From contig NZ_CP108088.1 of NCBI RefSeq assembly GCF_036192275.1, positions 5,767,501 to 5,831,500 of the forward strand: a stretch of 64,000 bases of DNA, given 5' to 3'. Position 1 is the stretch's first letter. The number at the start of each line of letters is the position of its first letter. Shown here piece by piece: positions 6,559-49,273 of the stretch. Made by a program: the position numbers and the translations under genes. The DNA comes from Streptomyces sp. NBC_00250. Its GTDB lineage: Bacteria; Actinomycetota; Actinomycetes; Streptomycetales; Streptomycetaceae. The notes below the pieces were generated by a model. The model searched no databases. It had not been told where the DNA came from and was given only the letters and a program-made list of their open reading frames with translations.

Positions 6559-7287
6559 ATGAAGACGATCGGGCTGATCGGTGGGATGAGTTGGGAGTCG
6601 ACAGCCGAGTACTACCGGTTGCTGAACGAGTTGACGCGTGACCGCCTCGGTGGACTCCATTCGGCGCGGTGCGTGCTCTACTCGGTGGACTTCGCGGAGA
6701 TCGAGGAGCTGCAGGTCCAGGGCAGTTGGACGAAGGCAGGCGAGATCCTCGCTGCGGCGGCTCAGGCTCTTGAAGCAGCCGGCGCAGACATGGTGCTGAT
6801 CTGCACCAACACCATGCACAAGGTCGCCGACCAGGTCGAGGCGGCGGTCTCCATCCCCTTGCTGCACCTGGCCGACGTCACCGCAGAGGCCGTACGGGCG
6901 TCGGGCGTGCGCCGAGTCGGCCTGCTGGGCACTGCGTTCACCATGGAGCAGGACTTCTACCGAGGCCGCCTGGAAGCCGGCGGACTGGATGTACGCGTCC
7001 CGGACGCTGAAGGGCGCGAGCTCGTCCACCGCGTGATCTACGAGGAACTCTGCCTGGGCATCGTGCGGGAAGAGTCACGCGACGCCTACCAGCAGGTCAT
7101 CAGGGACCTGGTCGCCGGTGGCGCGGAAGGCATCATCCTGGGCTGCACCGAAATCGAGCTCCTCATCGGCTCAGAGGACAGCCCCGTCCCGCTCTTCCCC
7201 ACGACACGCCTCCACGCCGAGGCTGCAGTGAACGCAGCGCTGCCCGACACCCAGAACGAAGGCCCGACCAAACTCGCATCCCACTGA
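6559..7287 (+). CDS. Aspartate/glutamate racemase family protein
   Basis: 242 residues from ATG 6559, with GAGGGG seven bases upstream. Begins MKTIGLIGGMSWEST, the signature of the YgeA/aspartate racemase family. The two catalytic cysteines are present at C82 (LICTNTMHK) and C196 (LGCTEIELL). The family interconverts L and D amino acids without cofactor by two-base proton transfer in the cytoplasm; substrate cannot be told from sequence. A GTG two codons upstream is an alternative start. It stands alone between accessory genes and an IS remnant. Confidence 0.88.
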   Translation: MKTIGLIGGMSWESTAEYYRLLNELTRDRLGGLHSARCVLYSVDFAEIEELQVQGSWTKAGEILAAAAQALEAAGADMVLICTNTMHKVADQVEAAVSIPLLHLADVTAEAVRASGVRRVGLLGTAFTMEQDFYRGRLEAGGLDVRVPDAEGRELVHRVIYEELCLGIVREESRDAYQQVIRDLVAGGAEGIILGCTEIELLIGSEDSPVPLFPTTRLHAEAAVNAALPDTQNEGPTKLASH

Positions 7288-8097: not shown

Positions 8098-8184
8098 GTC
8101 GGCCGCCCCGCCATGCTGCCCGGCTCGCCGACCCAACGCACCCCCCGTTTCCCGTGACCAAAGGCATAGGGCGGACCCCCAGTC

Positions 8185-9099
8185 CTATGTGGGCTCGCCC
8201 CCGCGCCCGGTGCCCGTGCCGCGGTCTCGTAGAGGGGCCTCGGAGCTGAACTTTTCGAACATCATCGCGAGACGGTCCAGCGAAGACCGGCTCGTGGTCC
8301 CGTCGTCGGGTCCGTCGGGCAGGCGGTCCCATGGAACGGCGGGAGCGGAGTCGGCCTCTTCGATCCATTGGACCAAGGCGTCGTGGTCGGGAGCGTCGAA
8401 CGGTGCTATCACGTCGTACATCAGCGTGCTTGCCGCGGAGTTCACCGCTGTGCACAACGCGTTGACCCGGTCACCCAGGCGGGTGGCCCCCGAGTCGGCC
8501 AGTACCGTCAGAACCCGGACCATCGCCAGGGCGGTGGCCTTGTGGTCGATGATGTCCAGCCGCAGGGTCGTGTTGATCATGTCCTGGCTGCCGCACGCGA
8601 TCTCGACAGGGCGGTAGTCGTGCCCGTCGCGGAACATTTCGGCGGCCCACCACAACCGGGCGAAGGCCTGGGTGTAGTGGGGCCCCGAGAACCGTGCGGT
8701 GCTGACCTTCTTCGTCGTCTCGTCCGTCGACTCGCCCGACGCGAGGTGTCGCCACAGGACGTAGTCCGGTGCGACGGCCATGGCGAGGAAGTTCCACGGG
8801 TCGGGGCGCGCGGCCTCGGAGCGCGTCATGCGTAGCGTGGCATGCAACCGGGGTGCCAACCACGCGTCCGCGGCGGCACGCGAACCGGCGAAGCGGTACA
8901 TCGCCTCGTCGAGGAGTTCTCGTATCGGAGCTGTGTTCCAGCGGGCTGAGCCGTCCAGGATCGGCGTGCTCGCGCGCAGCACGGCAACGTGTGGCAGGCG
9001 TTCCTGTCCTGCGCGCACGCCGTTGGTCAGAAAGGTGGAAGTGGCTGAGGAGCTCAGCGCCGCCATCCTCTCGGGGGCGTTTCCTTCGGACCGCGTCAT
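8185..9099 (-). CDS. Unknown protein, third gene of the ATPase operon (DUF6339-like)
   Basis: 304 residues from ATG 9099, which overlaps the upstream gene's stop by four bases (ATGA), so translation is coupled. Mostly helical. Distinctive stretches are LPHVAVLRASTPILDGS, ELLDEAMYRFAGSRAAADAW, LAPRLHATLRMTR and SGPHYTQAFARLWWAAEMF. They remind me of the actinobacterial DUF6339 family, found beside GHKL ATPases, methyltransferases and Vsr nucleases; this is from memory and unverified. No catalytic motif is visible. It is the last gene of a three-gene unit. Confidence 0.7.
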   Translation of the reverse strand: MTRSEGNAPERMAALSSSATSTFLTNGVRAGQERLPHVAVLRASTPILDGSARWNTAPIRELLDEAMYRFAGSRAAADAWLAPRLHATLRMTRSEAARPDPWNFLAMAVAPDYVLWRHLASGESTDETTKKVSTARFSGPHYTQAFARLWWAAEMFRDGHDYRPVEIACGSQDMINTTLRLDIIDHKATALAMVRVLTVLADSGATRLGDRVNALCTAVNSAASTLMYDVIAPFDAPDHDALVQWIEEADSAPAVPWDRLPDGPDDGTTSRSSLDRLAMMFEKFSSEAPLRDRGTGTGRGGEPT

Positions 9100-10073
9100 C
9101 GGGTCGCCCCTTCCTGGGCACGTGAGACGGATCGGGTCGCGGACGTGAGGTTCTTGGGGATCTGAGCCCGTCGCGATGCGGCGAACTGGATTCGGGGCTG
9201 GAGTTCCGCCCAGCCGTGGCCCTCCTTGCGACGGCTGCAGGCCTCGGCCAGCGCGTCCGCGATCGGAAGTCCGGGGAGAACGTCCGGAAGCATCAGGCGG
9301 AGGACGGATTCCCTCCATCCGCCCGGTAGCTGCGGCGTTCCGTCCTCGTTCTGTTCGAGTTCACCCAGCGCGGAGTGGAACATCGTCGACCAGGCCTCAG
9401 TGGCGATCTGGGCGGCCACGAGCCCCGCTGTGGCCTTCTCGAGCGGTCCCCGAGCGCCCTTGAGCAGCCCGGTGAGGCCTTCGAAGGAGGTGTTCAGCAG
9501 CACGGTGGGCATGTCACCGGTGGCGTCGATCAACCACGGTGCGTCCTTGAACGGACGAAGCCATTCCTGTGGGCCGTCGCGGAAGTCCGCCTCCACTATC
9601 TCCATCTCGCTCTGGCGCGTCGTCGTCCGTGCCAGGAAGTCCACGACCCAGGGTGTGTCACAGACACCGATGATTCGGCCGTCGACGCCCCCGTGGCTAC
9701 CCACGAAGCTGACGTTGAGAACGGCTCGGGCCAGGTGCTCGGAGCGCCGGATGCGCACCTCGCCGTGCCAGCGCTTGTCGTTCCGACCTCGTTGGAGTCG
9801 CGTGACCACGCGGGTGTTCGTCGCGCCCTCCGTCAGAACGGCGACGCACACGACTCCGGCCCAGGGGCCATCGGCCAATTCGTCGGTGGGGGCGGAGACT
9901 TCGATCTCCAGGAAGCCCTCCACCCAGTCGTCGCGTTCCACTTGGTGGAACGCGACGACGCGGTCCTGCTGGGAGATGAGGGACAGGTGCAGGGGTTTCC
10001 CGTCGATGCCCGCCTGCCGGACGGCGACGTCGATCTTTCCGATGAGCGTGGGGTAGGGGTAGACGGTGCTCAT
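9096..10073 (-). CDS. Unknown protein, second gene of the ATPase operon
   Basis: 325 residues from ATG 10073, overlapping the XRE-ATPase stop by four bases at its start and the next gene by four at its end. The N-terminal half looks beta-rich (TLIGKIDVAVRQAGIDG, GFLEIEVSAPTDE, VVCVAVLTEGATNTRVVTRL). The C-terminal half is helical, including a TVLLNTSFEGLTGLLKG segment and a basic end. No known motif. The tight coupling to a GHKL ATPase implies that the three proteins act together. Confidence 0.7.
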   Translation of the reverse strand: MSTVYPYPTLIGKIDVAVRQAGIDGKPLHLSLISQQDRVVAFHQVERDDWVEGFLEIEVSAPTDELADGPWAGVVCVAVLTEGATNTRVVTRLQRGRNDKRWHGEVRIRRSEHLARAVLNVSFVGSHGGVDGRIIGVCDTPWVVDFLARTTTRQSEMEIVEADFRDGPQEWLRPFKDAPWLIDATGDMPTVLLNTSFEGLTGLLKGARGPLEKATAGLVAAQIATEAWSTMFHSALGELEQNEDGTPQLPGGWRESVLRLMLPDVLPGLPIADALAEACSRRKEGHGWAELQPRIQFAASRRAQIPKNLTSATRSVSRAQEGATR

Positions 10074-12157
10074 GCGGTGGCCTCCCGAGCCTGCTGAATG
10101 TCCACGACCAGGCCGGCCATCGTGGCGGCCACGGGATGGCTGGCGACGGAGGTGATCCCGCCGAATCGAACCGTGCGCACGTCGGGTGACACGACGAGCT
10201 TGTCGTCGACGACGGTGCAGTTCTCCTTGGCCGTCAGTTCGGCCCACTCGAGGGCGGGCCGCCCGCCGGATCGCACGTCGAACTTGACGACGGGAACGAG
10301 GTGCCAGGGGTCTTCGCGCTGCGGGACAGTCAAGGTCACGTCCAGAGTCCACGCCCCGTCGGCGCCGACCCGCCCGTTCACCCGCTCGACGACCGGGTGT
10401 CCCTGGCCGCGTCGCCCTGTTCCCCCGACCGGAAGGTCGAGTCGCAGCAGGTTGCGGAGCACCTCGGGTCCGGTGCCGTCCTCCTGGGTGGTCCGGCGTC
10501 CCACGACTCCGCGGAGCGCGGCATCCATGCCGGCGTTGAACTCGGTAAGCCTTCGTGGCGCGTTGGGGTAGAGGGCGGAGAGCTCCTCCGTAGTGCCCCA
10601 TCGGTCGTGTTCCGGCGGCTCGGCGGCACGGAGGAAGGCTTCGGCGGCGTGGGCCTCCTCACCGCTGTCACCTGTGGCGAAGCCGGCGAGCAGAACGGCC
10701 TGGAACGGGTCGACGCCCAGGCCCAGACCCCGTGGGCGGCGAGTCGTGATGGTCATGCGGGTGCCGCGCATGCAGACGATGCGGCTGTGTTCCTGGTCCG
10801 TGTCCGTGGCGGGCGTGACCAGGAGGACCGCTCGGTGGGTACGGGGTACGGCCCTGCGCCCCTCGGACCTGAGTGGAGGCACGTCGAGGCGCACGTCGGC
10901 CGCGGCGACCTGGTCCGGAGTGGTGAGCTCGGCGACGGTTTCGCCGTCGAGATAGGCCCGGAAGGCACGGGCGAGTGCGGGGTGGCGCTCGTGCGGGTCG
11001 ACCCGGCGCTCGGGGACGACGGTCTCGTCATTGCGGAGGGCGCGGACGGAGGCCTCCAGCATCGCTGGGGTCGAGCGGCCCGAAGTCATGGCGGCCCAGA
11101 AGTTGTCGGCGATGGCGGCGATCAACGCCTCCTGCATCTCCTCCAGCGTGTTGCCGACGCCGGAGGCGTCGTGAGCGCCGACGACAAGAAAGGACGTTCC
11201 GGGGTCGTCGCTGTCGCGGTCCAGCCTCAGGTCCGCGGTCTCCTGCTCGGTGGCCCACCACGATCGGGAGACGCTCTCGTGCTCCTTCTCCGTGTCCGGT
11301 TCCCCGAGCCACGCCGGTCCGGCATATGCGACGCCCTCGACCTCCCGCCAAGGGAGGTCGAGCCGTCCGACGACACGGCGTGCGGTGCGGCCTTCGTGGC
11401 TCTCCGACAGGGTGCTGTTCATCAGCACCAGGCCGAGCCGACTCGTCGCCCACAGGGTGGCCTTGCCCAACCCGAACGATCCGCCTGCACGGTCGTTCCG
11501 CTTGTGGCTGTCGAGCTGCCGGCGGACCACCGCGGCGAATCGGCCGTCACCGTACTCGGGACCGGTGAGCCCGGCCGCGTTGTAGTCGTCCACGCGAAGG
11601 AGCAGCAGCGACGACTCCTCGCGCATTGCACGCAGACCCTCGTCCAGGACACGGCCGACCTTCTGCCGGGACAGCGCCGCCGCCGCGTAGTGGGATTCCA
11701 GCTCGTTCCACTTGAGTGCGGTGAGGAACGTGTGGAGGGTCTCGCCGGTCAACTCGTGCAAGGTGAAGCGCACCCGGACGGGGCTGGTGTGGTCCAGCCG
11801 CTCGTCCAGCGAGTTCTGCACCGTCTCCCGGGCGAGCACGGCGAGGCCCGCGTCGAAGGCGAAGGCAGCGGCGTTGCCGTACTCGCGTCCGCCGTCACGG
11901 TGTGCGAGGCGGTGGTGCCAGCCGATCGGCTGGCCGGAACCGGCGTCGGTGTGCCTGATCACCACGGTGGCGACGTCGGTGCCGAGCATCTCCGCGATTC
12001 TGGGCATCAGTTCGGCACGAGGGCGCGCTCTACCGGTCACCCAGGCGGACACGGCCGCACGTGTCAGGCCGAGCTGCTCGGCGAACTCGGCCTGGGTCAG
12101 AGCGCTCCGTCGAAGCTGGCGTCCGAGCCAGGTGCCGAACTCCTCGCTGTCGTCCAT
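10070..12157 (-). CDS. XRE-type HTH fused to a GHKL (MutL/Hsp90-like) ATPase
   Basis: 695 residues from ATG 12157. Residues 1-60 are a Cro/C1-type helix-turn-helix (LTQAEFAEQLGLTRAAVSAW). A GHKL ATPase follows: N-box LARETVQNSLDE near residue 110, a G1-like box VDDYNAAGLTG near 193, and glycine-rich lid GGSFGLGKATLW near 225. The remaining 450 residues are not recognised. The protein is likely both autoregulator and ATP-driven switch: the divergent promoter contains three TTTGAC half-sites suited to an XRE dimer. First gene of a three-gene operon, transcribed away from the helicase operon; it forms part of the defence locus. Confidence 0.75.
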   Translation of the reverse strand: MDDSEEFGTWLGRQLRRSALTQAEFAEQLGLTRAAVSAWVTGRARPRAELMPRIAEMLGTDVATVVIRHTDAGSGQPIGWHHRLAHRDGGREYGNAAAFAFDAGLAVLARETVQNSLDERLDHTSPVRVRFTLHELTGETLHTFLTALKWNELESHYAAAALSRQKVGRVLDEGLRAMREESSLLLLRVDDYNAAGLTGPEYGDGRFAAVVRRQLDSHKRNDRAGGSFGLGKATLWATSRLGLVLMNSTLSESHEGRTARRVVGRLDLPWREVEGVAYAGPAWLGEPDTEKEHESVSRSWWATEQETADLRLDRDSDDPGTSFLVVGAHDASGVGNTLEEMQEALIAAIADNFWAAMTSGRSTPAMLEASVRALRNDETVVPERRVDPHERHPALARAFRAYLDGETVAELTTPDQVAAADVRLDVPPLRSEGRRAVPRTHRAVLLVTPATDTDQEHSRIVCMRGTRMTITTRRPRGLGLGVDPFQAVLLAGFATGDSGEEAHAAEAFLRAAEPPEHDRWGTTEELSALYPNAPRRLTEFNAGMDAALRGVVGRRTTQEDGTGPEVLRNLLRLDLPVGGTGRRGQGHPVVERVNGRVGADGAWTLDVTLTVPQREDPWHLVPVVKFDVRSGGRPALEWAELTAKENCTVVDDKLVVSPDVRTVRFGGITSVASHPVAATMAGLVVDIQQAREATA

Positions 12158-12501
12158 CGCCCCTCATTCCGTACGGTCCCGTTGGTCGAACACAAGACTA
12201 CCAGCGGGCGTTTGACGCTCACGATCCTGTCAAACAAAATTTGACGCGACCCGAGGTTGATGCGCCAGCGAGGAGGTTGAAGTTTTCCAAACGGACTTCC
12301 CTGGATGAATCGCCCCGTGGCGGCGACTGCGGTCGTAGGTCTGGACGTGACCATGATCCACAAGTAGTGTCTTTTTCAACTCGCCCCAGTGGAGCGGGAT
12401 TAGGGGCGGAGATCCTCTCGATGGCGGAGCCATGCCCTGAGTCAGGTACGTGCACCAAACCTTGCGCTATGCGGCATTTCAATCACGTCGAGGGGGAACG
12501 C
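12158..12501. promoter_or_regulatory. Divergent intergenic promoter region with TTTGAC operator half-sites
   Basis: This 344-base gap separates the XRE-ATPase operon from the helicase operon. Half-sites GTTTGAC (12210-12216), its reverse complement GTCAAAC (12229-12235) and TTTGAC (12240-12245) make two overlapping inverted repeats. One is GTCAAA-CAAAA-TTTGAC with perfect arms; the other has a 12-base centre. They sit 53-88 bases upstream of the XRE start, and TTGACA/TTGACG within them could serve as -35 elements in each direction. The rest of the gap is AT-richer than its surroundings and holds no convincing gene. Confidence 0.55.
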
Positions 12502-12846
12502 ATGCCCGTACGAGAAGACACCCAGTTCATCAGGCGGTACGACGCCCTGCCCCAGGAGTTCCGTGGCGCGTTCCGGCGCGCCTACGCCGACTCCCAGGGC
12601 ATCCGTATCCGCATCCGGGACCTCGAACCCATGCGGCGTGCGGCGGACCGGCCGGTCCGGACCACCGCACCGATGGCGCTGGACAAGGAGCGCGCGAACC
12701 GACGTCGCATCCGCTCCTCCCGCCGCCCCTCCGCCCCCCGGCGCGGAATCCGTCCCGGCACGCATGCGCTCCGGCGGACGTTCGCCAGGGCGAGCACCGA
12801 CGGCGGTCTCGTCGTCACCATCACCATCGTGATCAAGAGGGGCTGA
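12502..12846 (+). CDS. Small basic unknown protein at the head of the helicase operon
   Basis: 114 residues from ATG 12502 with a strong GAGGGGGA ribosome site; an in-frame ATG at 12469 lacks one. The N-terminal third is amphipathic (DTQFIRRYDALPQEFRGAF). The middle is Arg-rich and probably nucleic-acid binding (ERANRRRIRSSRRPSAPRR). The end is hydrophobic (GGLVVTITIVIKRG). It lies 87 bases before the 1598-residue helicase on the same strand, so it may be the first gene of that operon. No family recognised. Confidence 0.55.
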   Translation: MPVREDTQFIRRYDALPQEFRGAFRRAYADSQGIRIRIRDLEPMRRAADRPVRTTAPMALDKERANRRRIRSSRRPSAPRRGIRPGTHALRRTFARASTDGGLVVTITIVIKRG

Positions 12847-12933
12847 CCCACACAGCCACTCTGGGGGTCGGCACACGCCGGCCCCCGTCCCCCCACACGT
12901 CATCGAACCGGATCTCCTCAAGACAGGTACTCC

Positions 12934-15900
12934 ATGACTGACCGGCAGTTCGCCGACCCTGCCCACTCCGCCGTGATCGCCACCGTGCTGCGCCAGTCCT
13001 CGGTCGTGCTGCAGACGTACAAGGTCGATCCGGGGCTAGTGCAGGAACACGCGAACGGCGAGCGCCGTATCACCCAGGGCGGTTACGGCGAGCGTCAGCT
13101 CTTCGAGCTCGTCCAGAACGCAGCCGACGAGATCGCTGCCGCGCCTGGCGGCAAGCTGCACGTCGTCCTCACGGACCGCTATCTGTACTGCGCCAACGAG
13201 GGCTCGCCGGTCACGCCCGAAGGTGCCGAGACCATCCTGCGCATGAGTGTCTCCCGTAAGCGCGGTGGTCAGATCGGCCGCTTCGGTGTCGGCGTCAAGT
13301 CAGTGCTCTCGGTGAGTGACACCCCGCAGTTCTTCAGCAGCAGCGGCAGCTTCGGCTTCGACCGTGACTGGTCCGCCGGCGAGATCGCCCACGCCATCGG
13401 AGCAGAGGGCGAGGTCGATATGGACACCCCTGTGCTGCGCATGGCCCGTCCCCTCGACGTCGAGCAGGAGCGTGCCGACGACGCCGATCTGGACCGACTC
13501 CTGCAGTGGGCGACGACCGTGGTCCGACTGCCGCTGCTGCCCGGCGCCGCGGACCGGCTCGCGCGCGACATCAACGGCCACAGGGCCCGCGACGGGCGGG
13601 AGACGGAGGCCTTCCCGTCGCACTTCCAGCTCTTCTCCTCGCACGTCGGCGAGCTTCACCTCCATGACGCTCGGAAGATGCCGCCGGTCCGCCGTGAGAT
13701 CTCGGTCAAGCCCAACGGCGTCTACCGCACCCTGAGGGAGGCGACACGAGGCGAGAAGCAGACCGTCGAGGAGTGGAAGGTCTTCTCCGTCGCGCATGCC
13801 CCGACGTCCGAGGTCGAGGCCAGCGCCGGTGAGTTGCACAACCGACCGGAACTCGACATCTCGTGGGCCGTGCCCGAATACACCGTCCGGAACGGCCTGT
13901 ACACGGTCCCTGTCGGCAAGGGTGCCTTCTGGGCGTTCTTCCCCACCAAGTACGAGGTGTCGCTCAGTGGCATCCTCAACGCCCCTTGGAAGACGAATGA
14001 GGACCGTCAGCACCTGCTCGACGGTACCCCGTTCAACCTGGAACTGCTGCGCGTAGCGGCCCGACTGGTCGTCGACACCCTTCCCGACCTCGTGCCCGCC
14101 GAGGACCCCGCCGCCTACCTTCCGCTGCTTCCCGGCCGTACGAAGGAGAAGCTGAACTGGGCGGACGACTACTTCCTGCGACAGGTGTGGGCCATCGCGG
14201 CCGAGCAGCCCTCCCTACCGGACCAGGACGGCAGGCTGCAGCGCCCCAAGGAACTCTTCATCACGCCCCCGCAGCTCGAGAAGGAATGGCTGCGCATCTG
14301 GTCGGAGTATGAGGGGCGTCCGGCGGGGTGGCTCCATCCCTCGGTCGACTATGCGGAGGGTCCTGTACGCCGGGGCAAGGTGAACCACATCCTCGACGCC
14401 GCCGGGAAGAAGCCCGAGAGCGTCAAGGACTGGCTGGAGGCCCTGGTTGCCGACGGCACCCCCGAAGCGTCCTGTCACGCCATCGAGATCCTCTCCTCGA
14501 TGGTGATCAAGGATGGGGCTGCCAGCCGCTTGAGGGGTGACTCGGAGCTCACGGCCGAGGCCCGCCTGGCCAAGATCGTGCTGACCGAGAAGAACGGGAT
14601 GATGGCCCCCGTCGCAGGTGAGATCTTCCACCGGACCGCGGCAGACTCCCTGCGTGACGACATGGACTACGTCGACACGCGCATCTCCGAGCGCCCTGAA
14701 ATGGCGCGGCACCTGCACAACATCGGCATCCGCGTCGCCGACGCGCAGGGCCGTTTCGAAGGCGTGCTGGACCAGGGGTTCGCCCACTACGACAACGAGG
14801 CGTGGTCCAACTTCTGGCTCCTGCTGCGCAGCGCCGGCGGCAACGTCCAGGTCGACCGCATCCGGTCGAAGGTGCCGAAGTACTCGGAGATCCTTCGTGT
14901 GCGCACTGTCGACGGGCGGTACCGACCGATGCGCGACTGCCTGCTGCCCGGACCGGTTGTGCCCGGCGACGGCAGCCGTGACGCGTCGATAGCGGTCGAC
15001 CTCGGCTTCCACGAGGGAGACCGTCCGGTCTTCCGTGAACTCGGTCTCGGTGACCGCCCGTCGCCCGGTCACCGGCCGGGCGACGAATGGTGGTTCGAGG
15101 AGTACAGGGAAGCTGTCCACGCGAGCCATCTGCGGTCCCTGCCGTCGAGCTCTCCGCGGCCGAGCATCTCCCGGCTGACCGTGGAGGGTGCGTCGACCGC
15201 GGGGCCCCTGCATCTCCTCCCCAAGCTTTCGGATGAAGGCCGAGCGTCCTTCATCGCCGCTCTTCCCGAGCCGGGCGTCGTGCAGAACTGGAACAGGCAG
15301 TACGGCACGAGTGCCGCGTCCCGTCAGGCGACCGTCTCCCCGCTGCGCTGGATGATCTCCAAGTACGGCCTGGTCAGGACGTCCGTCGGCCTCGTCAAGG
15401 TCGCCGAGGCCGTCGGCCCGCAGCTCAAGGAGTACGGGGCGATCCTCCCCGTCGCGGAGATCGATCCGGAGGTCGCCAAGAAGCTGAAGATGCCGACGAC
15501 GCCGGAGGAAGTGCCCAGCGCCCGCTGGGGCAAGCTGCTCGACCGGGTCCTGGAGAGCGAGGACGACGCCTTCATCGGGCGCGCCTACGCGCTGCTGTTG
15601 CGCGTCGGGTTCGAGTTCCCCGAAGGCGTCGCCACTCGCTGTCGGATGGGACACGTGTGGGAGGAGCGTCCCGACTCGGACATTGCCGTGGCGACCAACA
15701 CGACCGACTTCAACGAGCTCGTCCGCGAAGGGCTGCCCGCCCTGCTGGTCGCCGACAAGACGGACGCCGCGAGCGCCAAGGCCATGGTCGACGAATGGGG
15801 CATGCTCAAGGTCTCGGACGTGATCGCCAAGGAGATCCGCCACGTCAAGGCCGGCCCGGCGGTGCCGCTCTTTGACGAGTTCACCACGGTTCGTACGCGC

Positions 15901-19661: not shown

Positions 19662-22600
19662 CGGAGTCCGTTCACCAGGCGCATTACGAGGTGTGCGACT
19701 CGCTGCTGGAATCCCTGCGGGGAGACCTGCTGGGACCCGTGGGTGGTGAGGACGAGGTCCTTGAGGATGACGCGCCGATCACCATGTACCCCATGGGTGT
19801 GCTGTTCCCGCGCTCGAAGACGCAGGACGTGCGGTCCGAACCGGGCGAGTTGGAGTCGGCGCGCGACGGTCTGGACTCTCTGTCGGAACCGTCCCGCGGA
19901 AACCGAGAGGAGGAGGCCCACGACCTGGGAGTCTCCCTTGCCCATGTCCGAATGCCGTCGTCGATCGGACTGACCTTCGCGGTCGATCCCACGGTCTCCT
20001 CCCGGATCCGCTTCACGGTCCGGGCCGCCGTCTACCTTCCGGAAGACGCGGACGGAAATCCGGTCGCGGCGAAGCGAACCGAGGCACGCAGTACCCGGGC
20101 CCAGCGCGAACGTTGGCGCCGCGTAGCCCTGCACCTGGAACCCGAGGTCGTGGATGTGTCGACTCCGGGACTGCGCGAGCCCATCATCCTTCACAAGCCG
20201 GGGCTGGAGCTGCGGGTGCTGGTCCGTCCGGCGGACGCCTCGGGTGGACCGGTGTCCGTGACGGCCACGGTCGTCAACAGCCTCGAAGTCGGCAAGTTCG
20301 ACCTTCGCGACGCACACTGCTTCTACCAGCCGGAGCTGGAGGTCACCGCCGAGGACGGTGGCAGCGAGGTGTTCGTCGTACGTCCCACGGCCTTCGAATC
20401 GGTCGACCTGGAGCAGGCGCTCAGCCGGTTGTTGCACCGACACGCGCCGAGCTTCGCGACAGGGCACGGCTGTGCCGCTCGTTGGGACTGGACGCCTCCC
20501 CCCATCGGCGGTGTCCGTTCGCGTCGTCCGGCCGTCGCCGCCGTGCGTACAGAGTTCGTACCGTCTCACGAGGTGCTTCTGACGGACTCCAATCCGCGCA
20601 TCGATGATCGTGCCTTGACCATGTACAGGCTGGGCACCGAATCGGCCGAGAACGTGGTGACTGCACTGCGGCGGCTGCTGACCGACTACGAGGAATGGAT
20701 CGAGACCCAGGCGGAGCAGACGTCCCTGTTGGTGGGCACGGAACACGAATCGGTAGCCCGAGAACAGGTGAAGCTCTGTCGCCGGGCACTCGAGCGCATG
20801 CGCGACGGAGTCGATCTTCTCGCGGACCGCGATCGTCCGGAGATTCTGCGGGCTTTCCAGCTCGCCAACGTCGCGATGGCCGACCAGCGTGCCCGTACGT
20901 CCTGGGTCAAGAGTGGCAGGCAGGGCACCCCCGATGTGCGGGTCGGCAAGTGGCGACCGTTCCAGGTCTCCTTCGTCCTGCTGTGCCTTCGTGGGATCGT
21001 CGAACCCGGTCACCAGGACCGTGACGTGGCGGATCTGCTCTGGTTTCCCACTGGTGGCGGCAAGACCGAGGCGTACCTCGGGTTGATCGCGTTCACGACC
21101 TTCCTCCGCCGCCTGCGCGACAAGCAGGACGGCGCAGGGGTGACCGTGCTCATGCGTTACACCCTGCGACTGCTGACCCTGCAGCAGTTCGAGCGTGCGG
21201 CGGCGCTGATCTGTGCCATGGAAAGGCTACGGGCAGCCGACGCGGCAGCCCTTGGTCGCGAGGAGATCTCCATCGGGATGTGGGTGGGCCGATCGGCGAC
21301 ACCGAACACCCTGGCTGTCGCCGCGCAGAAGCTGGGCGAACTCCGTGCGAACCCGCTGAAGCCGATGCAGACGGAGAACCCTGTCCAGCTGCGCAATTGC
21401 CCCTGGTGTGGCGAGTCCCTGTCGCCGGACGACTACTCCGTCGACGAGGAGGCCGAGCGGATGGTGATCCGCTGCCCGGCGGACTCATGCGACTTCCACA
21501 CGGGTCTTCCTGTCCATCTCATCGACGAGGCCGTCTACCGGGCCCGCCCCACACTGGTCATCGCCACCGTCGACAAGTTCGCTTCCATGCCGTGGCGGCC
21601 GGCGACGGCGGCCCTCTTCAACCGTGACCGGAACGACGGCACCCGCCCCCCGGAACTGATCGTCCAGGACGAGCTCCACCTGATCTCCGGCCCACTCGGC
21701 ACGCTGACGGGCCTCTACGAGACAGCTGTGGACGCCCTCGCCAAGCGCCCGAAGGTCATCGCCTCCACCGCAACCATCCGTCGCGCGGACGAACAGGGCA
21801 CCCGGCTCTTCGCCCGTACGGTTCACCAGTTCCCACCGGCAGGGCTCGACTCGCGCGACTCGTGGTTCGCCGTAGAGACCCCTCGGGAGCGGAAGGCCGC
21901 ACGTCGCTATGTCGGCCTGTTGACGTCGAGCACCAGTCAGTCCACGCTCCTGATCCGTGTGTACGCGGCTCTGCTCCACCGTACGATGACCAGCGAGGCC
22001 CCGCCGGAGGTGAAGGACGCGTATTGGACGCTGGTCGGGTACTTCAACAGCCTGCGTCTGCTGTCCTCGGCAGAACTCCAGGTCCTCGATGACGTGCAGG
22101 ACCGTCTCGAGCACCTCGCCACCCGCGACGGGACCAAGTCCCGCTCCGTGGACGGCCTCACAGAGCTGAGCAGTCGCGCCAACGCCAGCGACATCTCCAG
22201 GCGGCTCAAGGAGGTCGAACGGCACCTCCCGATGTCGGACGTCCTGGATGTCCTCCTCGCCACCAACATGATCTCCGTGGGCGTTGACGTGGACCGACTC
22301 GGACTGATGGCGGTCATGGGCCAGCCGCAGACGACCGCCGAGTACATCCAGGCGACGAGCCGCGTCGGTCGCAGACACCCGGGACTGATCGCCGTCATGC
22401 TCAACTCCAGTCGCTCCCGTGACCGATCCCACTACGAGGACTTCCAGCACTTTCATTCGGCCCTGTACCGGGAGGTGGAGTCCACCAGCGTCACCCCGTT
22501 CTCGGTGCGTGCCCGTGACAGGGGCCTGCACGCCGTAGTCGTGGCATTGGCCAGACTGCTGCTGCCGGCCGCCCGCCCCAACGACGCCGCCGGACGCATC

Positions 22601-22891
22601 GAGGACTTCGTCGATGATCTGAAGGCGAAGGTCCGGCCGATTTTGCTGAATCGGGTCGGTGCGGTGGAGCGATCGGAGTCCGATGCCACTGCTCGGGCCT
22701 TCGACGACTTCGTCGCGTGGTGGCGTGAGGAGGCCGAGGTGCGACCGAATCTCGTCTACGAAGCCAGGCGAACGAGCCGGGTCCCTGCCTTGCTGGGCGG
22801 CTACGACGACGAGACGGACGACGCAGGCCTGCCGACACTGTGGAGTCTGCGTGACGTGGATGCTTCGTCCACCTTCTTCGAGGAGCGCTGA
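19658..22891 (+). CDS. drmA: DISARM-type helicase DrmA
   Basis: 1077 residues; ATG 19658 overlaps the UvrD-like stop by four bases. The N-terminal 400 residues are a beta-rich domain. The helicase core has Walker A FPTGGGKTEAY at 463-473, the unusual Walker B VQDELHLI (QDELH at 670-674) that marks DrmA-type helicases, STATI, and NMISVGVDVDRLG with QATSRVGRR as motifs V and VI. A likely zinc finger is inserted between motifs I and II (C581-C584, C606-C611). In DISARM, DrmA with DrmB loads on incoming DNA and restricts phage. DrmB follows three bases downstream. The identification rests on these motifs and on the pairing with DrmB. Confidence 0.85.
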   Translation: MTESVHQAHYEVCDSLLESLRGDLLGPVGGEDEVLEDDAPITMYPMGVLFPRSKTQDVRSEPGELESARDGLDSLSEPSRGNREEEAHDLGVSLAHVRMPSSIGLTFAVDPTVSSRIRFTVRAAVYLPEDADGNPVAAKRTEARSTRAQRERWRRVALHLEPEVVDVSTPGLREPIILHKPGLELRVLVRPADASGGPVSVTATVVNSLEVGKFDLRDAHCFYQPELEVTAEDGGSEVFVVRPTAFESVDLEQALSRLLHRHAPSFATGHGCAARWDWTPPPIGGVRSRRPAVAAVRTEFVPSHEVLLTDSNPRIDDRALTMYRLGTESAENVVTALRRLLTDYEEWIETQAEQTSLLVGTEHESVAREQVKLCRRALERMRDGVDLLADRDRPEILRAFQLANVAMADQRARTSWVKSGRQGTPDVRVGKWRPFQVSFVLLCLRGIVEPGHQDRDVADLLWFPTGGGKTEAYLGLIAFTTFLRRLRDKQDGAGVTVLMRYTLRLLTLQQFERAAALICAMERLRAADAAALGREEISIGMWVGRSATPNTLAVAAQKLGELRANPLKPMQTENPVQLRNCPWCGESLSPDDYSVDEEAERMVIRCPADSCDFHTGLPVHLIDEAVYRARPTLVIATVDKFASMPWRPATAALFNRDRNDGTRPPELIVQDELHLISGPLGTLTGLYETAVDALAKRPKVIASTATIRRADEQGTRLFARTVHQFPPAGLDSRDSWFAVETPRERKAARRYVGLLTSSTSQSTLLIRVYAALLHRTMTSEAPPEVKDAYWTLVGYFNSLRLLSSAELQVLDDVQDRLEHLATRDGTKSRSVDGLTELSSRANASDISRRLKEVERHLPMSDVLDVLLATNMISVGVDVDRLGLMAVMGQPQTTAEYIQATSRVGRRHPGLIAVMLNSSRSRDRSHYEDFQHFHSALYREVESTSVTPFSVRARDRGLHAVVVALARLLLPAARPNDAAGRIEDFVDDLKAKVRPILLNRVGAVERSESDATARAFDDFVAWWREEAEVRPNLVYEARRTSRVPALLGGYDDETDDAGLPTLWSLRDVDASSTFFEER

Positions 22892-22894
22892 ATC

Positions 22895-24760
22895 ATGAGC
22901 CCCGCACCCCCCCGCACCCGTCGCCGCGGCCTTCCCGCCACCCCCGTCCGCTCGGCCCGCCGTCTCGGCGAGGTCCGACGCGCACAGCTCATCACCACCT
23001 ATGGCGTGGGCGCGATGATCGCGGTGGAGAACGAGTCCTTCCTCGTGCGCGGTATCGATTCGTGGGACATCTCGGAGGCTCCGCTGGTCCTGGAGCCGAG
23101 GTTGGCCCGGAGGCTGGGTGTCAGGGCCTTCCGCCTGCCTCCCGCGCCGGATCCCGACAAGGCGACCGACGGTGTCCGGGCCGTGCGTTTTCCGGTGATG
23201 TACTCCTGCCCCGAGTGCCGGCTTCTGCAGCCCTTCCGCAGGTTCAACTCGCCTGCGGGCAGGGCGGAGTGCTCGACCTGTCAGGAGAGTCTCGTCCCGT
23301 CCCGCTTCGTGATGGCATGCACCCGAGGTCATCTCGAGGACTTCCCCTTCTGGAAGTGGGTACATCGGGGCACCCAGCGCACGGAAGCCGGCGGCTGTGG
23401 AGGCGAACTCAGGTTCCACGCGGATGGATCGACGGCCTCACTGCGTGCTGTACGGATCAGTTGCAGCTGCGGCGCGGAGGAGGTGTCGATGGAGGGGGCG
23501 TTTCGGCGCCAAGCGCTCAAGGACCTCGGTATCCGGTGCGGCGGCCGTCGTCCGTGGCTCAAGGACGCACCGGCCGAGAGCTGCGAGGAGCCGCCCCGCA
23601 CGCTTCAGCGCGGTTCCTCCTCGGTCTGGTTCCCCGTCATGCACTCCGCCCTGTCGATCCCGCCCTGGAGCGAAGGGATCGACAAGATCACCGCGCGCGT
23701 GTACGACAAGCTCAAGGACGAGGACGCCGCGTTCATCCGGCGGTACGTCCAGGTCGAGAACGTCCTCAAGCACCACCCCCAGTACACGCCCGACGAAGTC
23801 GTCGCCTGCATCGAGCGCTGGCGTACGCAGGAGGCGGTGTCACGCGACGAGACGGCAGTGCTCGGGGAGACGGGAGCGTGTGAGGAGGATGCCCGTGCCG
23901 AGCTGTACCGGGGCGAGTACGACAGTCTGTGCAAGCCGCACCCGGAGCGCACGGACGCCGGTGAGCAGGACTTCGTCTGTGAGGCTCCCGATGCCCCGAT
24001 CGACCTGCTCAGGGAAGCGCACGGCCTGGAGCAGGTCATGCTGCTCAAGCGGCTGCGCGAGGTCCGCGCGCTGCAGTCGTTCCGACGGGTGGAGGAACCG
24101 AGCCCGGCGGACGGCCCGTACCGCCGCGCGCCGATCTCCCTGGCAAAGCCTGAATGGTTCCCCGCGTTCGAAGTGAGCGGCGAAGGCGTGTTCCTGCGAC
24201 TCGACAACGACCGCCTCCGCGCCTGGGAGGAGCAGCCGGGCCCCCTCGCTCGGGGGCGAAGGATCCGAAACAACCACGAAGCATTGTTGCGCGAGCGCAA
24301 TGCTTCATCCGACAAGCCCGTCCCCGAATCCCGGGCCACCCCCCGGTTCGTGCTTCTTCACACCCTCGCGCACATTCTGATCAACGAATGGAGTCTGGAC
24401 GGTGGCTACCCGGCCGCCGCGCTCCGCGAGAGGCTCTACGCGGAGGAGGACATGGCGGGCATCCTCATCTACACCGCCACGAGCGACTCGGCTGGCAGCC
24501 TCGGTGGCATCGTGGCCCAGGGTGACCCCCGCCGGCTCGACGCCACTCTGCGCTCGGCCCTGCACCGAGCGCGTTGGTGCTCCAACGATCCCCTGTGCAT
24601 GGAATCCGAGGCGAGTGGTGCGGACGGCCTCAACCTGGCCGCGTGCCATGCGTGCGTCCTGCTCCCGGAGACCAGCTGCGAGAACAACAACATCCTCCTC
24701 GACCGAGCCACCCTCATCGGTACGCCGGACCTGTCTGCCCTGGGATTCTTCAGTAGGTGA
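22895..24760 (+). CDS. drmB: DISARM-type DrmB, DUF1998 protein
   Basis: 621 residues from ATG 22895, three bases after drmA. It begins with a basic tail and RAQLITTYGVGAMIAVENES, typical of DrmB. Cysteine pairs CPEC near residue 107 and CSTCQES near 128 with TRGHLEDFPFWKW form a zinc-binding region. The C-terminal DUF1998 region includes LLHTLAHILINEWSLDGGY near 487, TATSDSAGSLGG, and Cys clusters CSNDPLCMES and AACHACVLLPETSC. DrmB is the obligate DrmA partner. No DrmC follows; the next gene converges from the other strand. Confidence 0.85.
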   Translation: MSPAPPRTRRRGLPATPVRSARRLGEVRRAQLITTYGVGAMIAVENESFLVRGIDSWDISEAPLVLEPRLARRLGVRAFRLPPAPDPDKATDGVRAVRFPVMYSCPECRLLQPFRRFNSPAGRAECSTCQESLVPSRFVMACTRGHLEDFPFWKWVHRGTQRTEAGGCGGELRFHADGSTASLRAVRISCSCGAEEVSMEGAFRRQALKDLGIRCGGRRPWLKDAPAESCEEPPRTLQRGSSSVWFPVMHSALSIPPWSEGIDKITARVYDKLKDEDAAFIRRYVQVENVLKHHPQYTPDEVVACIERWRTQEAVSRDETAVLGETGACEEDARAELYRGEYDSLCKPHPERTDAGEQDFVCEAPDAPIDLLREAHGLEQVMLLKRLREVRALQSFRRVEEPSPADGPYRRAPISLAKPEWFPAFEVSGEGVFLRLDNDRLRAWEEQPGPLARGRRIRNNHEALLRERNASSDKPVPESRATPRFVLLHTLAHILINEWSLDGGYPAAALRERLYAEEDMAGILIYTATSDSAGSLGGIVAQGDPRRLDATLRSALHRARWCSNDPLCMESEASGADGLNLAACHACVLLPETSCENNNILLDRATLIGTPDLSALGFFSR

Positions 24761-24775
24761 GAGCCGGGCTCGGCA

Positions 24776-24796
24776 CCCCCTCGCGAGGCGGGGGGG
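24776..24796. terminator. GC-rich bidirectional terminator between drmB and the methyltransferase
   Basis: CCCCCTCGC (24776-24784), loop GAG, then GCGGGGGGG (24788-24796) gives a nine-pair stem with one T-G wobble, midway between two convergent stops (24760 and 24829). No T-run follows, as is common for actinobacterial terminators. A palindromic CAGGGCCCTG lies immediately after. Confidence 0.55.
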
Positions 24797-24828
24797 CAGG
24801 GCCCTGCTTCGCTGGGCTGAGCGGAGGG

Positions 24829-26400
24829 TCACCTGCCGGTGAGCGGGTGGCCCTTCAGGCCACGGTGCCCGAGGGGTTCCACCGTTCGCTCCGGCTTCCA
24901 GGCCACCAGGTCCTTGACGCCCTGGTCCAGCCTGGCCGCGACCTCGTCCTCGTCCAGCTCGGGATCGAGCACGTGTCGCAGTACGTGCAGGGCGAGCCGG
25001 GGGGGTACGGCATTGCCGATCTGCTGTGACACGTCGTTGCCGTCCCAGGGGTAGGCGGCGGGGAACGTCTGCAGCACTCCTGCCTCGGCACCGTTGAAAC
25101 GGGCGAGGTCGTCATCGAGGTCCTTGTCGGTGCCCTTGTGGACCACGCGGTTCCGCGACACCTTTCCGGTGATCGTGGCGGAAGGGGTGTCGTGGTCACG
25201 CCGGCCGCGAGCCTCCGGCACGCCGCCGGTGCCGTAGTTGGAGACGACGGTGAACGGGGGACGGGGGCGGACCTTGTCCGAGAACGGCCGCGCGGCCTTC
25301 AGCGCGGTCTCCATGGAGACCCACTTCTCGGGCTTCCTCCGGGTCCCGCCGTTCTCGATCTCGGAGCTCTCCAGAGGGAGGGTGTCGGTGTGGCCCGCCT
25401 TCGACGGCCCGCTGCGGGAAACGCCGCGGTGGTACGGCTCGTGGGTCTCCCTCACCTGCGGCAGAGGATCACGGCCTGCCCTGCCGAGCCGGGCGATCAG
25501 CACGGCGCGCCGTCGGGTCTGGGGAACGCCGAAGGCCTCGGTGTGCAGGAACTGCGTCGCGGTCCGGTATTCGAGGGTGTCGAGCACCGCGGCATACTCC
25601 TCCCACACCCGCATCACCGCCGGCACCTGTTCCAGGACGACGGCCTCGTAGGCCGTCGCGCCTGGCCGCCTGCTCCGCTCGATGATCCACCACAGGGGCT
25701 GCAGGACGAGTCCGGTCCGCTCGTCGCCGAGCTCCTCGAGTCTGGCCTTCAGCTTTTCGAGCACGCCGTCCAGGTCGCCGAATTCCTTGAGCAGACAGGT
25801 GAGCCCGGCATCCGGGAATTCGAGGGTCTGAGGCGCTTTGAGCTCCTTCAGGAACCGCTTCGCCTCCTCCGCCGAGTTCCCCAGTTCCTCGAGCCTCTTC
25901 CGTATGGCCTTGCGCTTCTCGGTCCTGGACTGCTCCACCGCGCGCTTCTCGGCCTTGAGAGCCCGGGCCTCGACCTCCTTGCGCCTGAGTTCCTCGTGGA
26001 TCTGCCGCCAGGTACGGAAGACATGCATCCAGGCCGATAGCGGGTCAGGGGCATCAGCAGTGTTGCGCACTGCCCTGTGCAGACGATCGATGTACCGGAG
26101 CACGTCGTCCAGCGCCCTGCGGCCCGCGCCGTGCCCTGCGACGGTAAAGGTCTGGCAGGGCGGACCACCGGTCAGCACCTGGGCATGCGGAAAGAAGGCG
26201 GCACGGTACTGCCGGACGTCGCCCTGGAAGGTGTCCATGCCTGCCTTGGCGCGGGTCGCACATGCTCCGGCGTCCCACTCGATGCCGGTCACCTCGTGCC
26301 CGAGCACATGCGCAGCCACATCGAGCCCACCGGGGCCGGCGAAGAGGTCCAGGATGCGGAACTTCGCTGGTGAGGAGCGTTCCATTTCGATGTGACTCAT
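24829..26400 (-). CDS. DNA (cytosine-5-)-methyltransferase with coiled-coil insertion
   Basis: 523 residues from ATG 26400. C5-methyltransferase motifs: I LDLFAGPGGLD (18-28), IV GGPPCQTF (78-85, catalytic Cys82), VI-like EQVP (257-260, in place of ENV), VIII QTRRRAVL (294-301) and X QQIGNAVPP near 465. Between motifs IV and VI there is an extra segment of roughly 105 residues (130-235), very rich in Lys/Glu/Arg and Leu and predicted by eye to be a coiled coil (EARALKAEKRAVEQSRTEKR). It should methylate host DNA to mark self. It converges on drmB and shares its strand with vsr. By analogy with class 2 DISARM, where the methylase is DrmMII, it is probably the modification arm. Confidence 0.88.
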   Translation of the reverse strand: MSHIEMERSSPAKFRILDLFAGPGGLDVAAHVLGHEVTGIEWDAGACATRAKAGMDTFQGDVRQYRAAFFPHAQVLTGGPPCQTFTVAGHGAGRRALDDVLRYIDRLHRAVRNTADAPDPLSAWMHVFRTWRQIHEELRRKEVEARALKAEKRAVEQSRTEKRKAIRKRLEELGNSAEEAKRFLKELKAPQTLEFPDAGLTCLLKEFGDLDGVLEKLKARLEELGDERTGLVLQPLWWIIERSRRPGATAYEAVVLEQVPAVMRVWEEYAAVLDTLEYRTATQFLHTEAFGVPQTRRRAVLIARLGRAGRDPLPQVRETHEPYHRGVSRSGPSKAGHTDTLPLESSEIENGGTRRKPEKWVSMETALKAARPFSDKVRPRPPFTVVSNYGTGGVPEARGRRDHDTPSATITGKVSRNRVVHKGTDKDLDDDLARFNGAEAGVLQTFPAAYPWDGNDVSQQIGNAVPPRLALHVLRHVLDPELDEDEVAARLDQGVKDLVAWKPERTVEPLGHRGLKGHPLTGR

Positions 26401-26942
26401 GGGCCTGAATTCTAGCCGGCCGGCCGAGGTGCGTAGTACGCCTTGTCTACGCCCTGTGGACAGAGGGTAGAGCGGTCGCTATGGCCACACCGAGTTCCCT
26501 GCCCACCGGGCGGGGAGTGGCGTGACCGATCTACCGGTACGGGGCCGTCTTCCGCCCCGTGACCTGCCATTCCGGCAGAGACGACTGCAGGAGGGCTGCC
26601 TGGTTTACCGTGATCTTCACCATCTGCGCGAGGTCGTCCGAGCGCAGCCACAGCACACGTACTCCTCCGCCCCCGGTACCTCGTCCGCCCTCGTGACGGC
26701 GCTCTCCCATGCGTGTCCAGGGCCGCTTCGTACCGGACGGGCCGAAGTCCGCACCGTCACGATTCCTCGAGCCCTCCGACCAGCATCGGTGCCACAGACG
26801 GGCTCGTCCACCGTCGACTTTGGTGGGGTGAAGGCGCCGGACCACGGTTTCTCGAGCGCCACGAGAATGCCGAGAGGCCCGCGCTCTCCGGTTCCGACGT
26901 CAACTCGCCACCGCCAGTTTGCCGCCGACGAAGCGAAGTTGA
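26401..26942. other. 540-base gap between methyltransferase and vsr; possible decayed ORF
   Basis: No convincing gene. On the minus strand an open frame (26531-26845) ends in a plausible peptide (WLRSDDLAQMVKITVNQAAL). A second, shifted frame (26617-26946) begins with protein-like NWRWRVDVGTGERGPLGILV. Together they could be one short gene broken by a frameshift, but neither has a good start site or a known motif. The 5' part should also hold the methyltransferase promoter. Confidence 0.3.
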
Positions 26943-27413
26943 TCACTTATCCGTAGCCTGACCGTTCCCTTGGAGGCGCTTCGGGGCGGTGCGCCTCAGT
27001 CGCTCCCGGTCCACCGTCGCGTGTACTGCCGCCGCGACCTCGTCCGCCGGCATGTGCTCCCAGAAGCGCAGGACCACCCATCCCTGAGCCTTGAGATGTT
27101 CGGTCGTCTCCTCGTCGCGAGCCATGTTGCGGTCCAGCTTCTGCCTCCACCACTCGGCATTCGCCTTCGGCTGCGTGGCGTGCTCGGGGCAGCCGTGCCA
27201 GAAGCAGCCGTCGATCAGCACGGCCACCTTGACGGAAGTGAAGGCGACGTCGATCCGCCGTCGGGCCATGCCAGGCACCGGAAGCTCGACGCGGTAGCGC
27301 AGGCCGGCCGCATGGAGCAGGCGACGAACCGAGAGCTCGGCGGCGGTGTTCTTGCTGGCCTGCCTGCTCATGCGGGCCGAGACGGCGGGGGAGGACGGAA
27401 CGGCTTCGGACAC
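26943..27413 (-). CDS. vsr: Very short patch repair endonuclease (Vsr family)
   Basis: 156 residues from GTG 27413, or 142 from the ATG at 27371 where homology begins (MSRQASKNTAAELSVRR). Family hallmarks: RYRVELPVPGMARRRIDVAF with the catalytic Asp, VAVLIDGCFWHGCPEH, and a C-terminal VLRFWEHM. Vsr nicks T:G mismatches left by deamination of 5-methylcytosine and so accompanies C5-methyltransferases; here it lies 542 bases upstream of one on the same strand. In defence islands Vsr-like nucleases may instead act as the cutting component. The catalytic residues look intact. Confidence 0.88.
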   Translation of the reverse strand: MSEAVPSSPAVSARMSRQASKNTAAELSVRRLLHAAGLRYRVELPVPGMARRRIDVAFTSVKVAVLIDGCFWHGCPEHATQPKANAEWWRQKLDRNMARDEETTEHLKAQGWVVLRFWEHMPADEVAAAVHATVDRERLRRTAPKRLQGNGQATDK

Positions 27414-27440
27414 ACCTGCATTGTGCCGGAGGTTCGCTGA

Positions 27441-49190: not shown

Positions 49191-49199
49191 GACTCTGCG

Positions 49200-49273
49200 T
49201 GCGCCGCCAGGGACTCGAACCCCGGACCCGCTGATTAAGAGTCAGCTGCTCTAACCAACTGAGCTAGCGGCGC
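49200..49273 (-). tRNA. tRNA-Lys (anticodon CTT), copy 1
   Basis: 74 nt. Acceptor stem GCGCCGC/GCGGCGC with discriminator A, D arm GCTCAGTTGGTTAGAGC, anticodon arm CTGACTCTTAATCAG giving CTT, T arm with GGTTCGAGTCC. CCA is not encoded. Identical to the copy at 58119-58192. Confidence 0.96.

What the first reader, a model, noticed from the sequence alone, without database searches (positions are those of the whole stretch)
8185..27413. Composite DISARM-related defence locus with divergent ATPase and helicase operons
Seen: within 19 kb, an XRE-GHKL ATPase with two coupled unknowns; a second operon of sacsin-like ATPase/SF2 helicase, UvrD-like helicase, DrmA and DrmB; a C5-methyltransferase and a Vsr nuclease. 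Known: DrmA/DrmB plus a methylase are the DISARM core, whereas GHKL ATPase with Vsr and Dcm-type enzymes is typical of other defence groups. Inference: three helicase motors and two GHKL-type ATPases act as one restriction system not matching class 1 or 2 DISARM, because DrmC, DrmD and DrmE are absent.
Basis: partly seen in the sequence, partly recalled or inferred. Interest (0 to 1): 0.88.

Follow-up and report, generated by a model that had tools for sequence, protein, structure and literature searches.

The report
Sacsin-helicase class of DISARM-like defence
This Streptomyces locus carries a conserved gene cluster that probably builds an anti-virus machine around the known DISARM helicase pair plus two extra DNA motors and an Hsp90/sacsin-like ATPase, usually beside a DNA-methylating module; it matches neither described DISARM class and has not been tested in the laboratory.

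Summary
A plus-strand operon (12934-24760) encodes a sacsin/RadD-like ATPase-helicase (SacHel), a UvrD/GajB-like helicase, DrmA and DrmB; a divergent operon (8185-12157) encodes an XRE-GHKL protein and two partners (M33ABC, PADLOC candidate PDC-M33); a C5-methyltransferase and Vsr lie beside them. Of 79 named SacHel loci, 75 keep UvrD-DrmA-DrmB in order behind SacHel, 2 run off their contigs, 2 do not. M33ABC is divergent in 67 of 77 with enough DNA. In 394 Actinomycetia genomes SacHel occurs in 17 of 64 with DrmA and 0 of 330 without. DrmAs of this cassette form one group apart from class 1 DISARM. A sister type pairs SacHel with a nuclease-fused (NERD) helicase and another DrmAB lineage; one locus appends SacHel to an ARMADA-like operon. 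M33 proteins co-vary with SacHel (r 0.88-0.93), the methyltransferase less (0.51). A same-species genome has a different methylase-Vsr-helicase island at this site. I read it as an undescribed DISARM-like class with an exchangeable methylation module. Phage defence, cleavage and the nuclease are not shown.

The parts
7535..27448 (.). variable island (hotspot cargo); flanks shared with a same-species genome that holds a different cargo
   Evidence: window 6755-7246, 7440-7534 (a repeated element) and 27449-28198 align at the two ends of the G711 stretch L264
8185..9102 (-). M33C, 305 aa, DUF6339
   Evidence: PF19866 43.8 bits, cut-off 23.2; PADLOC PDC-M33C 3.8e-6 on the longer ORF
9096..10073 (-). 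M33B, 325 aa, no family; predicted N-terminal beta-sandwich and C-terminal helical part
   Evidence: model, mean pLDDT 89.7; 76 ORFs including the window's located, 49 aligned
10070..12157 (-). M33A, 695 aa, XRE helix-turn-helix plus GHKL-like ATPase
   Evidence: PDC-M33A 79.5 bits; HTH_3 36.1; motifs at 114 and 225
12211..12245 (-). conserved tripartite operator-like element GTCAAA-N5-TTTGACA-N10-TGTCAAA upstream of M33A
   Evidence: 72 of 78 M33A upstream regions score 15 or more of 20; 3 of 390 control windows; 2 of 74 upstream of SacHel
12934..17730 (+). SacHel, 1598 aa: sacsin/GHKL N-terminus, Hsp90-middle-like region (weak), RadD-like SF2 helicase C-terminus
   Evidence: 18 full-length places in 17 of 394 genomes
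17712..19661 (+). UvrD/GajB-like SF1 helicase, 649 aa (overlaps the SacHel stop; a later start is possible)
   Evidence: PF00580 93 bits; GajB profile 95.8 bits
19658..22891 (+). DrmA, 1077 aa (short form; the match to Serratia DrmA begins at that chain's residue 143)
   Evidence: NF038325 997 bits; 7s9v_A E 2.2e-168
22895..24760 (+). DrmB, 621 aa
   Evidence: NF038324 492 bits; 7s9v_B E 2.7e-78
24829..26400 (-). C5-cytosine DNA methyltransferase, 523 aa; here beyond DrmB because the seven-gene block is inverted relative to G261 at the same site
   Evidence: PF00145 86 bits; PPCQ motif at 80; orientations
26943..27413 (-). Vsr endonuclease, 156 aa
   Evidence: TIGR00632 109.8 bits, cut-off 97.85

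Best explanation
The core SacHel-UvrD-DrmA-DrmB is an undescribed class of DISARM-like anti-phage/anti-plasmid system, usually licensed by a linked methylation module (M33ABC + C5-methyltransferase + Vsr). Proposed mechanism: the methyltransferase marks host DNA, and Vsr repairs the T:G mismatches that 5-methylcytosine causes. DrmAB, held off by an acidic linker that aligns with the trigger-loop region of Serratia DrmA, loads on single-stranded ends of unmarked invading DNA. SacHel, an Hsp90/sacsin-type ATP-driven clamp joined to a RadD-like motor, and the UvrD-like motor are recruited and unwind or strip the DNA, blocking replication. A nuclease finishes the DNA: supplied from elsewhere in this type, fused to the SF1 helicase in the sister type. 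M33A/B/C couples methylation state to the machine and controls its own dose through its XRE domain and a conserved operator. Shown here: gene content, order, co-occurrence, co-variation, DrmA grouping, operator pattern, hotspot. Inferred from families: every biochemical step, the defence role and the direction of signalling.
For: 75 of 79 named loci keep UvrD-DrmA-DrmB behind SacHel, 2 more are cut by contig ends. In 394 genomes SacHel occurs in 17 of 64 DrmA genomes and 0 of 330 others. DrmAs of the cassette lie on one side of a branch, SH-aLRT 99.9 (95 in the wider tree). SacHel is paired with a second DrmA lineage in the NERD type; holding both types together is rejected, p-AU 0.0002. M33ABC also stands beside another DrmA lineage (L181, L182). 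Distance correlation of SacHel with M33A 0.93, M33B 0.90, M33C 0.88 against 0.97 within the operon and 0.51 for the methyltransferase, similar within 47 Streptomyces loci. Methyltransferase near 54 of 63 loci with M33 and 1 of 8 without. DUF6339 is fused to a C5-methyltransferase in L264. Same-site exchange of methylase-Vsr-helicase cargo. DrmAB of DISARM responds to ssDNA and methylation (PMC9142583, passages read).
Against: No phage, plasmid or biochemical data. No nuclease identified in the core; the C-terminal 180 residues of UvrD were not modelled. M33ABC is missing in 10 of 77 loci with enough upstream DNA and in 5 of 5 fetched NERD-type loci, so the core can stand without it. SacHel is not bound to DrmAB: in L036/L097 it follows an ARMADA-like operon while UvrD-DrmA-DrmB of this group stands without SacHel elsewhere in the same genome; L128 and L236 are SacHel copies without UvrD-DrmAB directly behind. 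The operator lies before M33A only, so no shared regulation is seen. Vertical inheritance can also raise the distance correlations. The sets of loci overlap and most are Streptomyces. The tree is a quick search without bootstrap.
Confidence: 0.6

Rival explanations
1. Two independent systems share a defence hotspot: a paraMORC/Mza-like restriction module (C5-methyltransferase, Vsr, M33ABC) and a DISARM-like helicase system; neither needs the other.
For: M33ABC occurs without DrmAB in L194 and L195; the core occurs without M33; the operator is before M33A only; hotspot with exchangeable cargo.
Against: Fixed divergent geometry in 67 of 77 loci; co-variation nearly as high as within the operon; M33ABC joined to DrmAB of two separate DrmA lineages.
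Confidence: 0.3
2. A decayed or incomplete class 2 DISARM with passenger genes; SacHel and UvrD do not take part.
For: DrmA/DrmB pass the curated DISARM models; a C5-methyltransferase is present, as in class 2.
Against: SacHel and UvrD are kept in order in 75 of 79 named loci and have intact motifs here; own DrmA group; no DrmE_C match in the genome.
Confidence: 0.05
3. A DNA-repair or DNA-processing machine (RadD-like, UvrD-like and YprA-type helicases) rather than defence.
For: RadD and UvrD are repair helicases by family; YprA/MrfA relatives repair mitomycin damage (PMC12458937, introduction read).
Against: Patchy presence (17 of 394 genomes), exchangeable hotspot cargo with methylase-Vsr genes in the same species, methylase linkage, one copy attached to an ARMADA-like operon.
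Confidence: 0.05

Closest known systems
DISARM class 1 and class 2 (DrmA/DrmB systems)
   Same: DrmA and DrmB by curated models, adjacent and in the same order; a DNA methyltransferase nearby
   Different: No DrmC, DrmD, DrmE or PglX-like DrmMI among the listed hits; SacHel and UvrD added; the DrmA match starts at residue 143 of Serratia DrmA; own DrmA group
PADLOC candidate PDC-M33
   Same: M33A and M33C match its profiles
   Different: Here linked to DrmAB; M33B hit no profile at E 0.01; the candidate's definition was not available to me
MORC/paraMORC restriction operons (Iyer 2008, PMC2292703) and Mza
   Same: GHKL ATPase with C5-methyltransferase, Vsr and superfamily II helicase
ARMADA, BRIGADE, TALON, Druantia, Dpd (YprA family, PMC12458937)
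   Same: YprA-type helicase core; ARMADA type II also has a GajB-like helicase; one SacHel relative (L036) directly follows an ARMADA-II-like operon
   Different: In the window DrmA and DrmB are separate genes and no BrxHII-like or PglX-like partner is seen; the word sacsin does not occur in that text
Gabija GajB
   Same: UvrD scores best with GajB profiles
   Different: No GajA among the listed hits of the proteins scanned; embedded in the DrmAB operon
PADLOC family TmtA
   Same: SacHel residues 44-513 match its N-terminal part (126.9 bits)
   Different: Only the N-terminal third; what TmtA is I could not find

Membership tests
DISARM (any) | DrmA helicase | tested here: met
   NF038325 997 bits over cut-off 950; 7s9v_A E 2.2e-168
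DISARM (any) | DrmB (DUF1998/MZB) as separate adjacent gene | tested here: met
   NF038324 492 over 240; PF09369 36.1 over 24.2
DISARM type I and II (PADLOC definition, PMC9252829) | DrmC present | tested here: not met
   No DrmC among listed hits of 9 locus and 10 flanking or intergenic proteins (best 25 families listed for three of them); four PLDc_2 matches in three ORFs elsewhere in the genome
DISARM type I | DrmD and DrmMI present | tested here: not met
   None among the listed hits of the same 19 proteins
DISARM type II | DrmE present | tested here: not met
   No DrmE among listed hits; DrmE_C absent from the whole genome, though in 14 control genomes it rang in 1 and over the cut-off in 0
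DISARM type II | DrmMII methyltransferase | tested here: inconclusive
   C5-methyltransferase hits DrmMII at 63.6 bits but MTase_II at 296.4
PDC-M33 | M33A and M33C proteins | tested here: met
   79.5 and 24.6 bits
PDC-M33 | M33B protein | tested here: inconclusive
   No PADLOC hit at E 0.01; definition not readable here
[quoted passage not shown]
   In the window DrmA/DrmB are split and no such partner is listed (only a 19.3-bit BrxH match of SacHel)
[not shown]
   No Mza among listed hits
Gabija | GajA nuclease beside GajB | tested here: not met
   No GajA among listed hits (33 further families of the UvrD protein not listed)
DISARM (any) | Anti-phage activity | not testable with these tools
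   Needs an experiment

The most novel reading that the evidence does not exclude
A third class of DISARM in Actinomycetota, in which an Hsp90/sacsin-type clamp fused to a translocase works with a UvrD motor and DrmAB, licensed by a GHKL-DUF6339-methyltransferase module that is exchangeable between helicase effectors. SacHel is a general partner of YprA-family plus UvrD-family motors: paired with DrmAB and a plain UvrD, with another DrmAB lineage and a nuclease-fused SF1 helicase, and once with an ARMADA-like set.
Probability: 0.5. Interest if true: 0.82.

Novelty: new variant of a known kind. Interest (0 to 1): 0.7.

Why it matters
DISARM's nuclease and the way methylation and helicase parts talk to each other are open questions (PMC9142583 says that how a nuclease is brought in has remained a mystery; passage read). 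A class with a sacsin-like ATPase, and a sister class whose SF1 helicase carries a NERD nuclease domain, offers natural experiments on which motor recruits which nuclease. A SacHel match (E 1e-80 or better) was found in 67 of 392 genomes of the window's genus, one of them broken in three frames (L244), so it may matter for phage resistance and DNA uptake in antibiotic producers. It also suggests that DrmAB is a shared engine combined with interchangeable GHKL-methylase modules.

Tried and rejected

Corrected on re-checking: I had taken L036/L097 for a contig-edge case. 2.5 kb lie behind its SacHel and hold no UvrD; it is a true exception, described in the report.

Capped or dropped: homologue lists show the best 120 of 1726 and of 458. 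score only two candidates a genome. DrmA extraction left out L097, L108, L131, L070, L128, L194, L195 and found none in L061; L084 (truncated) was dropped before the tree. That tree included one wrongly extracted row, L200; (48 rows) left out L200, L213-L215 and others. L046 was left out of alignments A1 and A3. G319 and G274 (distant M33A) were not examined. The genus is called Streptomyces because such contigs bear that name.

Literature: searches showed no description of SacHel with DrmAB; only openly licensed PMC papers were searched, so one may exist elsewhere. Seen: PMC12458937 abstract, introduction, results, conclusions and start of methods (parts 1-4 of 8); PMC2292703 passages and one section; PMC3710099, PMC9142583, PMC9252829, PMC13118837, PMC10740426 and PMC7159879 passages only; other papers as listings. 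A preprint on defences embedded in known systems is recalled, not seen.
Full report
What is there. The window lies at 5,767,501-5,831,500 of a 9.2-Mb contig. The plus-strand operon SacHel (12934-17730), UvrD-like (17712-19661), DrmA (19658-22891) and DrmB (22895-24760) has overlapping or nearly touching genes. The minus-strand operon M33A-M33B-M33C overlaps by four and seven bases once M33B and M33C are given their internal ATG starts (my reading). A C5-methyltransferase and a Vsr follow on the minus strand. GC in 2-kb windows is 66.5-70.4% from 7001 to 28000, 71-76% from there to about 42000, and 66.5-73% to the left, so composition alone marks no sharp island.

Families. DrmA and DrmB pass NCBI's DISARM models and match the solved Serratia DrmAB chains. 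The DrmA match starts at residue 143 of the Serratia chain, so the part where the YprA paper places an EVE-like domain has no counterpart. Residues 50-97 of this DrmA (11 acidic, 6 basic) align with the region that Bravo et al. call the trigger loop (176-232); whether it acts so is untested. SacHel has a sacsin N-terminus (NF047352) and a RadD-like C-terminus; its best PADLOC match is the N-terminal part of TmtA. Its 975-residue middle gives a confident model (pLDDT 89.1) whose best but weak matches are Hsp90-family middle domains. UvrD scores best with GajB profiles. The helicase, ATPase and methylase motifs that I looked for are present.

Core cassette. In 394 Actinomycetia genomes, 18 full-length SacHel places lie in 17 genomes. 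Of the 17 places outside the window, 15 have UvrD, DrmA and DrmB behind SacHel, one (L050) has a NERD-UvrD, DrmA and DrmB, and one (L036) has neither. DrmA occurs in 64 of the 394 and all 17 SacHel genomes are among them (Fisher p 5e-15, ignoring relatedness). In the named set of 79 loci, 75 have all three genes in order on the same strand; L061 and L084 run off their contigs after UvrD and within DrmA; L128, a second copy facing the cassette L118, and L097 (same contig as L036) lack them. In a further set of 20 regions, chosen by me from 67 matching genomes of 392 in the genus, 14 of 15 SacHel-UvrD-type regions are complete; L236 is an extra copy without UvrD-DrmAB directly behind it; L244's SacHel lies in three frames. 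One of 346 genomes of a phylum sample lies in another class and has the same order followed by a NERD-UvrD (L223); four of the 346 matched in all. These sets share some genomes.

Exception. In L036/L097 (Rhodococcoides corynebacterioides by the title of L097) SacHel follows, on the same strand, a 963-aa DrmD/BrxHII-like protein, a 1312-aa type IIG/DrmMI-like methyltransferase, a 2238-aa DruE-like helicase and an 885-aa GajB-like helicase. This resembles the ARMADA type II order given in PMC12458937. The same genome carries UvrD, DrmA and DrmB of the window's group about 29 kb away without SacHel beside them (L196, L216).

Sister type. Five of five fetched B-type loci read SacHel, NERD-UvrD, DrmA, DrmB, without M33ABC in the stretch examined. 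NERD is a nuclease-related domain (PF08378 over cut-off in L050). In the DrmA tree the SacHel-UvrD-type DrmAs (19 rows, plus L196) lie on one side of a branch (SH-aLRT 99.9), and holding both types together is rejected (p-AU 0.0002). In the earlier 70-row tree the same branch has 95. So SacHel was combined with DrmAB more than once, or DrmAB was replaced. Class 1 rows (labelled by me from the sizes of neighbouring genes, not by profile) lie in a separate group with some unlabelled rows among them. No confident class 2 reference was in the sample; L192 has a DrmE_C match below cut-off.

M33 module. M33ABC is divergent to SacHel in 67 of 77 loci with at least 6.5 kb upstream. M33A is in 14 of 394 genomes: 8 with the cassette, 2 beside DrmAB of another lineage without SacHel (L181, L182), 2 without DrmAB (L194, L195), 2 not examined. 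Pairwise distances of SacHel correlate 0.97 with UvrD, DrmA and DrmB, 0.93 with M33A, 0.90 with M33B, 0.88 with M33C, but 0.51 with the methyltransferase and 0.65 with Vsr (68, 55 and 52 loci); within loci titled Streptomyces (47, 45, 42) M33A has 0.93, the methyltransferase 0.57, Vsr 0.48. Shared descent contributes to all of these; the low values of the neighbours serve as a partial control. Among 71 loci with 9 kb on both sides, the methyltransferase is near 54 of 63 with M33ABC and 1 of 8 without (p 6e-5); Vsr 52 of 63 and 3 of 8. Where a plus-strand methyltransferase is present, it ends a median 155 bases from M33C (55 of 57 within 1 kb).

Operator. GTCAAA-N5-TTTGACA-N10-TGTCAAA precedes M33A in 72 of 78 regions (15 or more of 20 letters, spacers free within limits) against 3 of 390 random windows. 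It is not before SacHel (2 of 74), the methyltransferase (1 of 62), DrmA (1 of 74), UvrD (0 of 73), Vsr (0 of 56) or M33C (0 of 77). The pattern was read from 16 of these same regions, so the count is descriptive. It suggests self-control by the XRE domain, like a controller protein in restriction systems; this is inference.

Reading. DrmAB appears as a helicase engine joined, in different lineages, to SF1 helicases with or without nuclease domains, to SacHel, and to GHKL-methylase modules; SacHel itself can join another YprA-type set. The best reading of this locus is a DISARM-like system of a class not in the PADLOC definitions that I could read (a 2022 paper) nor in the papers found. Function, cleavage and the direction of methylation control remain untested.

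Noticed in passing
L036:2470-19983 and L196:790-3678 (G118; same contig as L097): SacHel directly behind an ARMADA-II-like set (DrmD/BrxHII-like, IIG/DrmMI-like methyltransferase, DruE-like helicase, GajB-like helicase) on one strand.
   Followed up: partly
[not shown]
   Followed up: partly
window 12211-12245 and relatives: Tripartite operator-like element before the XRE-GHKL gene, not before the other genes.
   Followed up: partly
L050, L228-L232: Sister cassette: SacHel, NERD-fused UvrD, DrmA, DrmB, with its own DrmA lineage.
   Followed up: partly
[not shown]
   Followed up: partly
L196:9421-12231: MzaC-like helicase (306 bits) close to the UvrD-DrmA-DrmB genes of G118.
   Followed up: no
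L118 and L128 (Actinoplanes xinjiangensis): Two SacHel genes on one contig facing each other, with a distant M33A-like gene (33%) and Vsr between them.
   Followed up: no
[not shown]
   Followed up: no
L244; L046 DrmB: SacHel split over three frames in one genome; DrmB in two overlapping pieces in L046: decayed or mis-assembled copies.
   Followed up: no
window 49199-49273 and 58118-58192: Two tRNA-Lys(CTT) genes 9 kb apart on the same strand.
   Followed up: no
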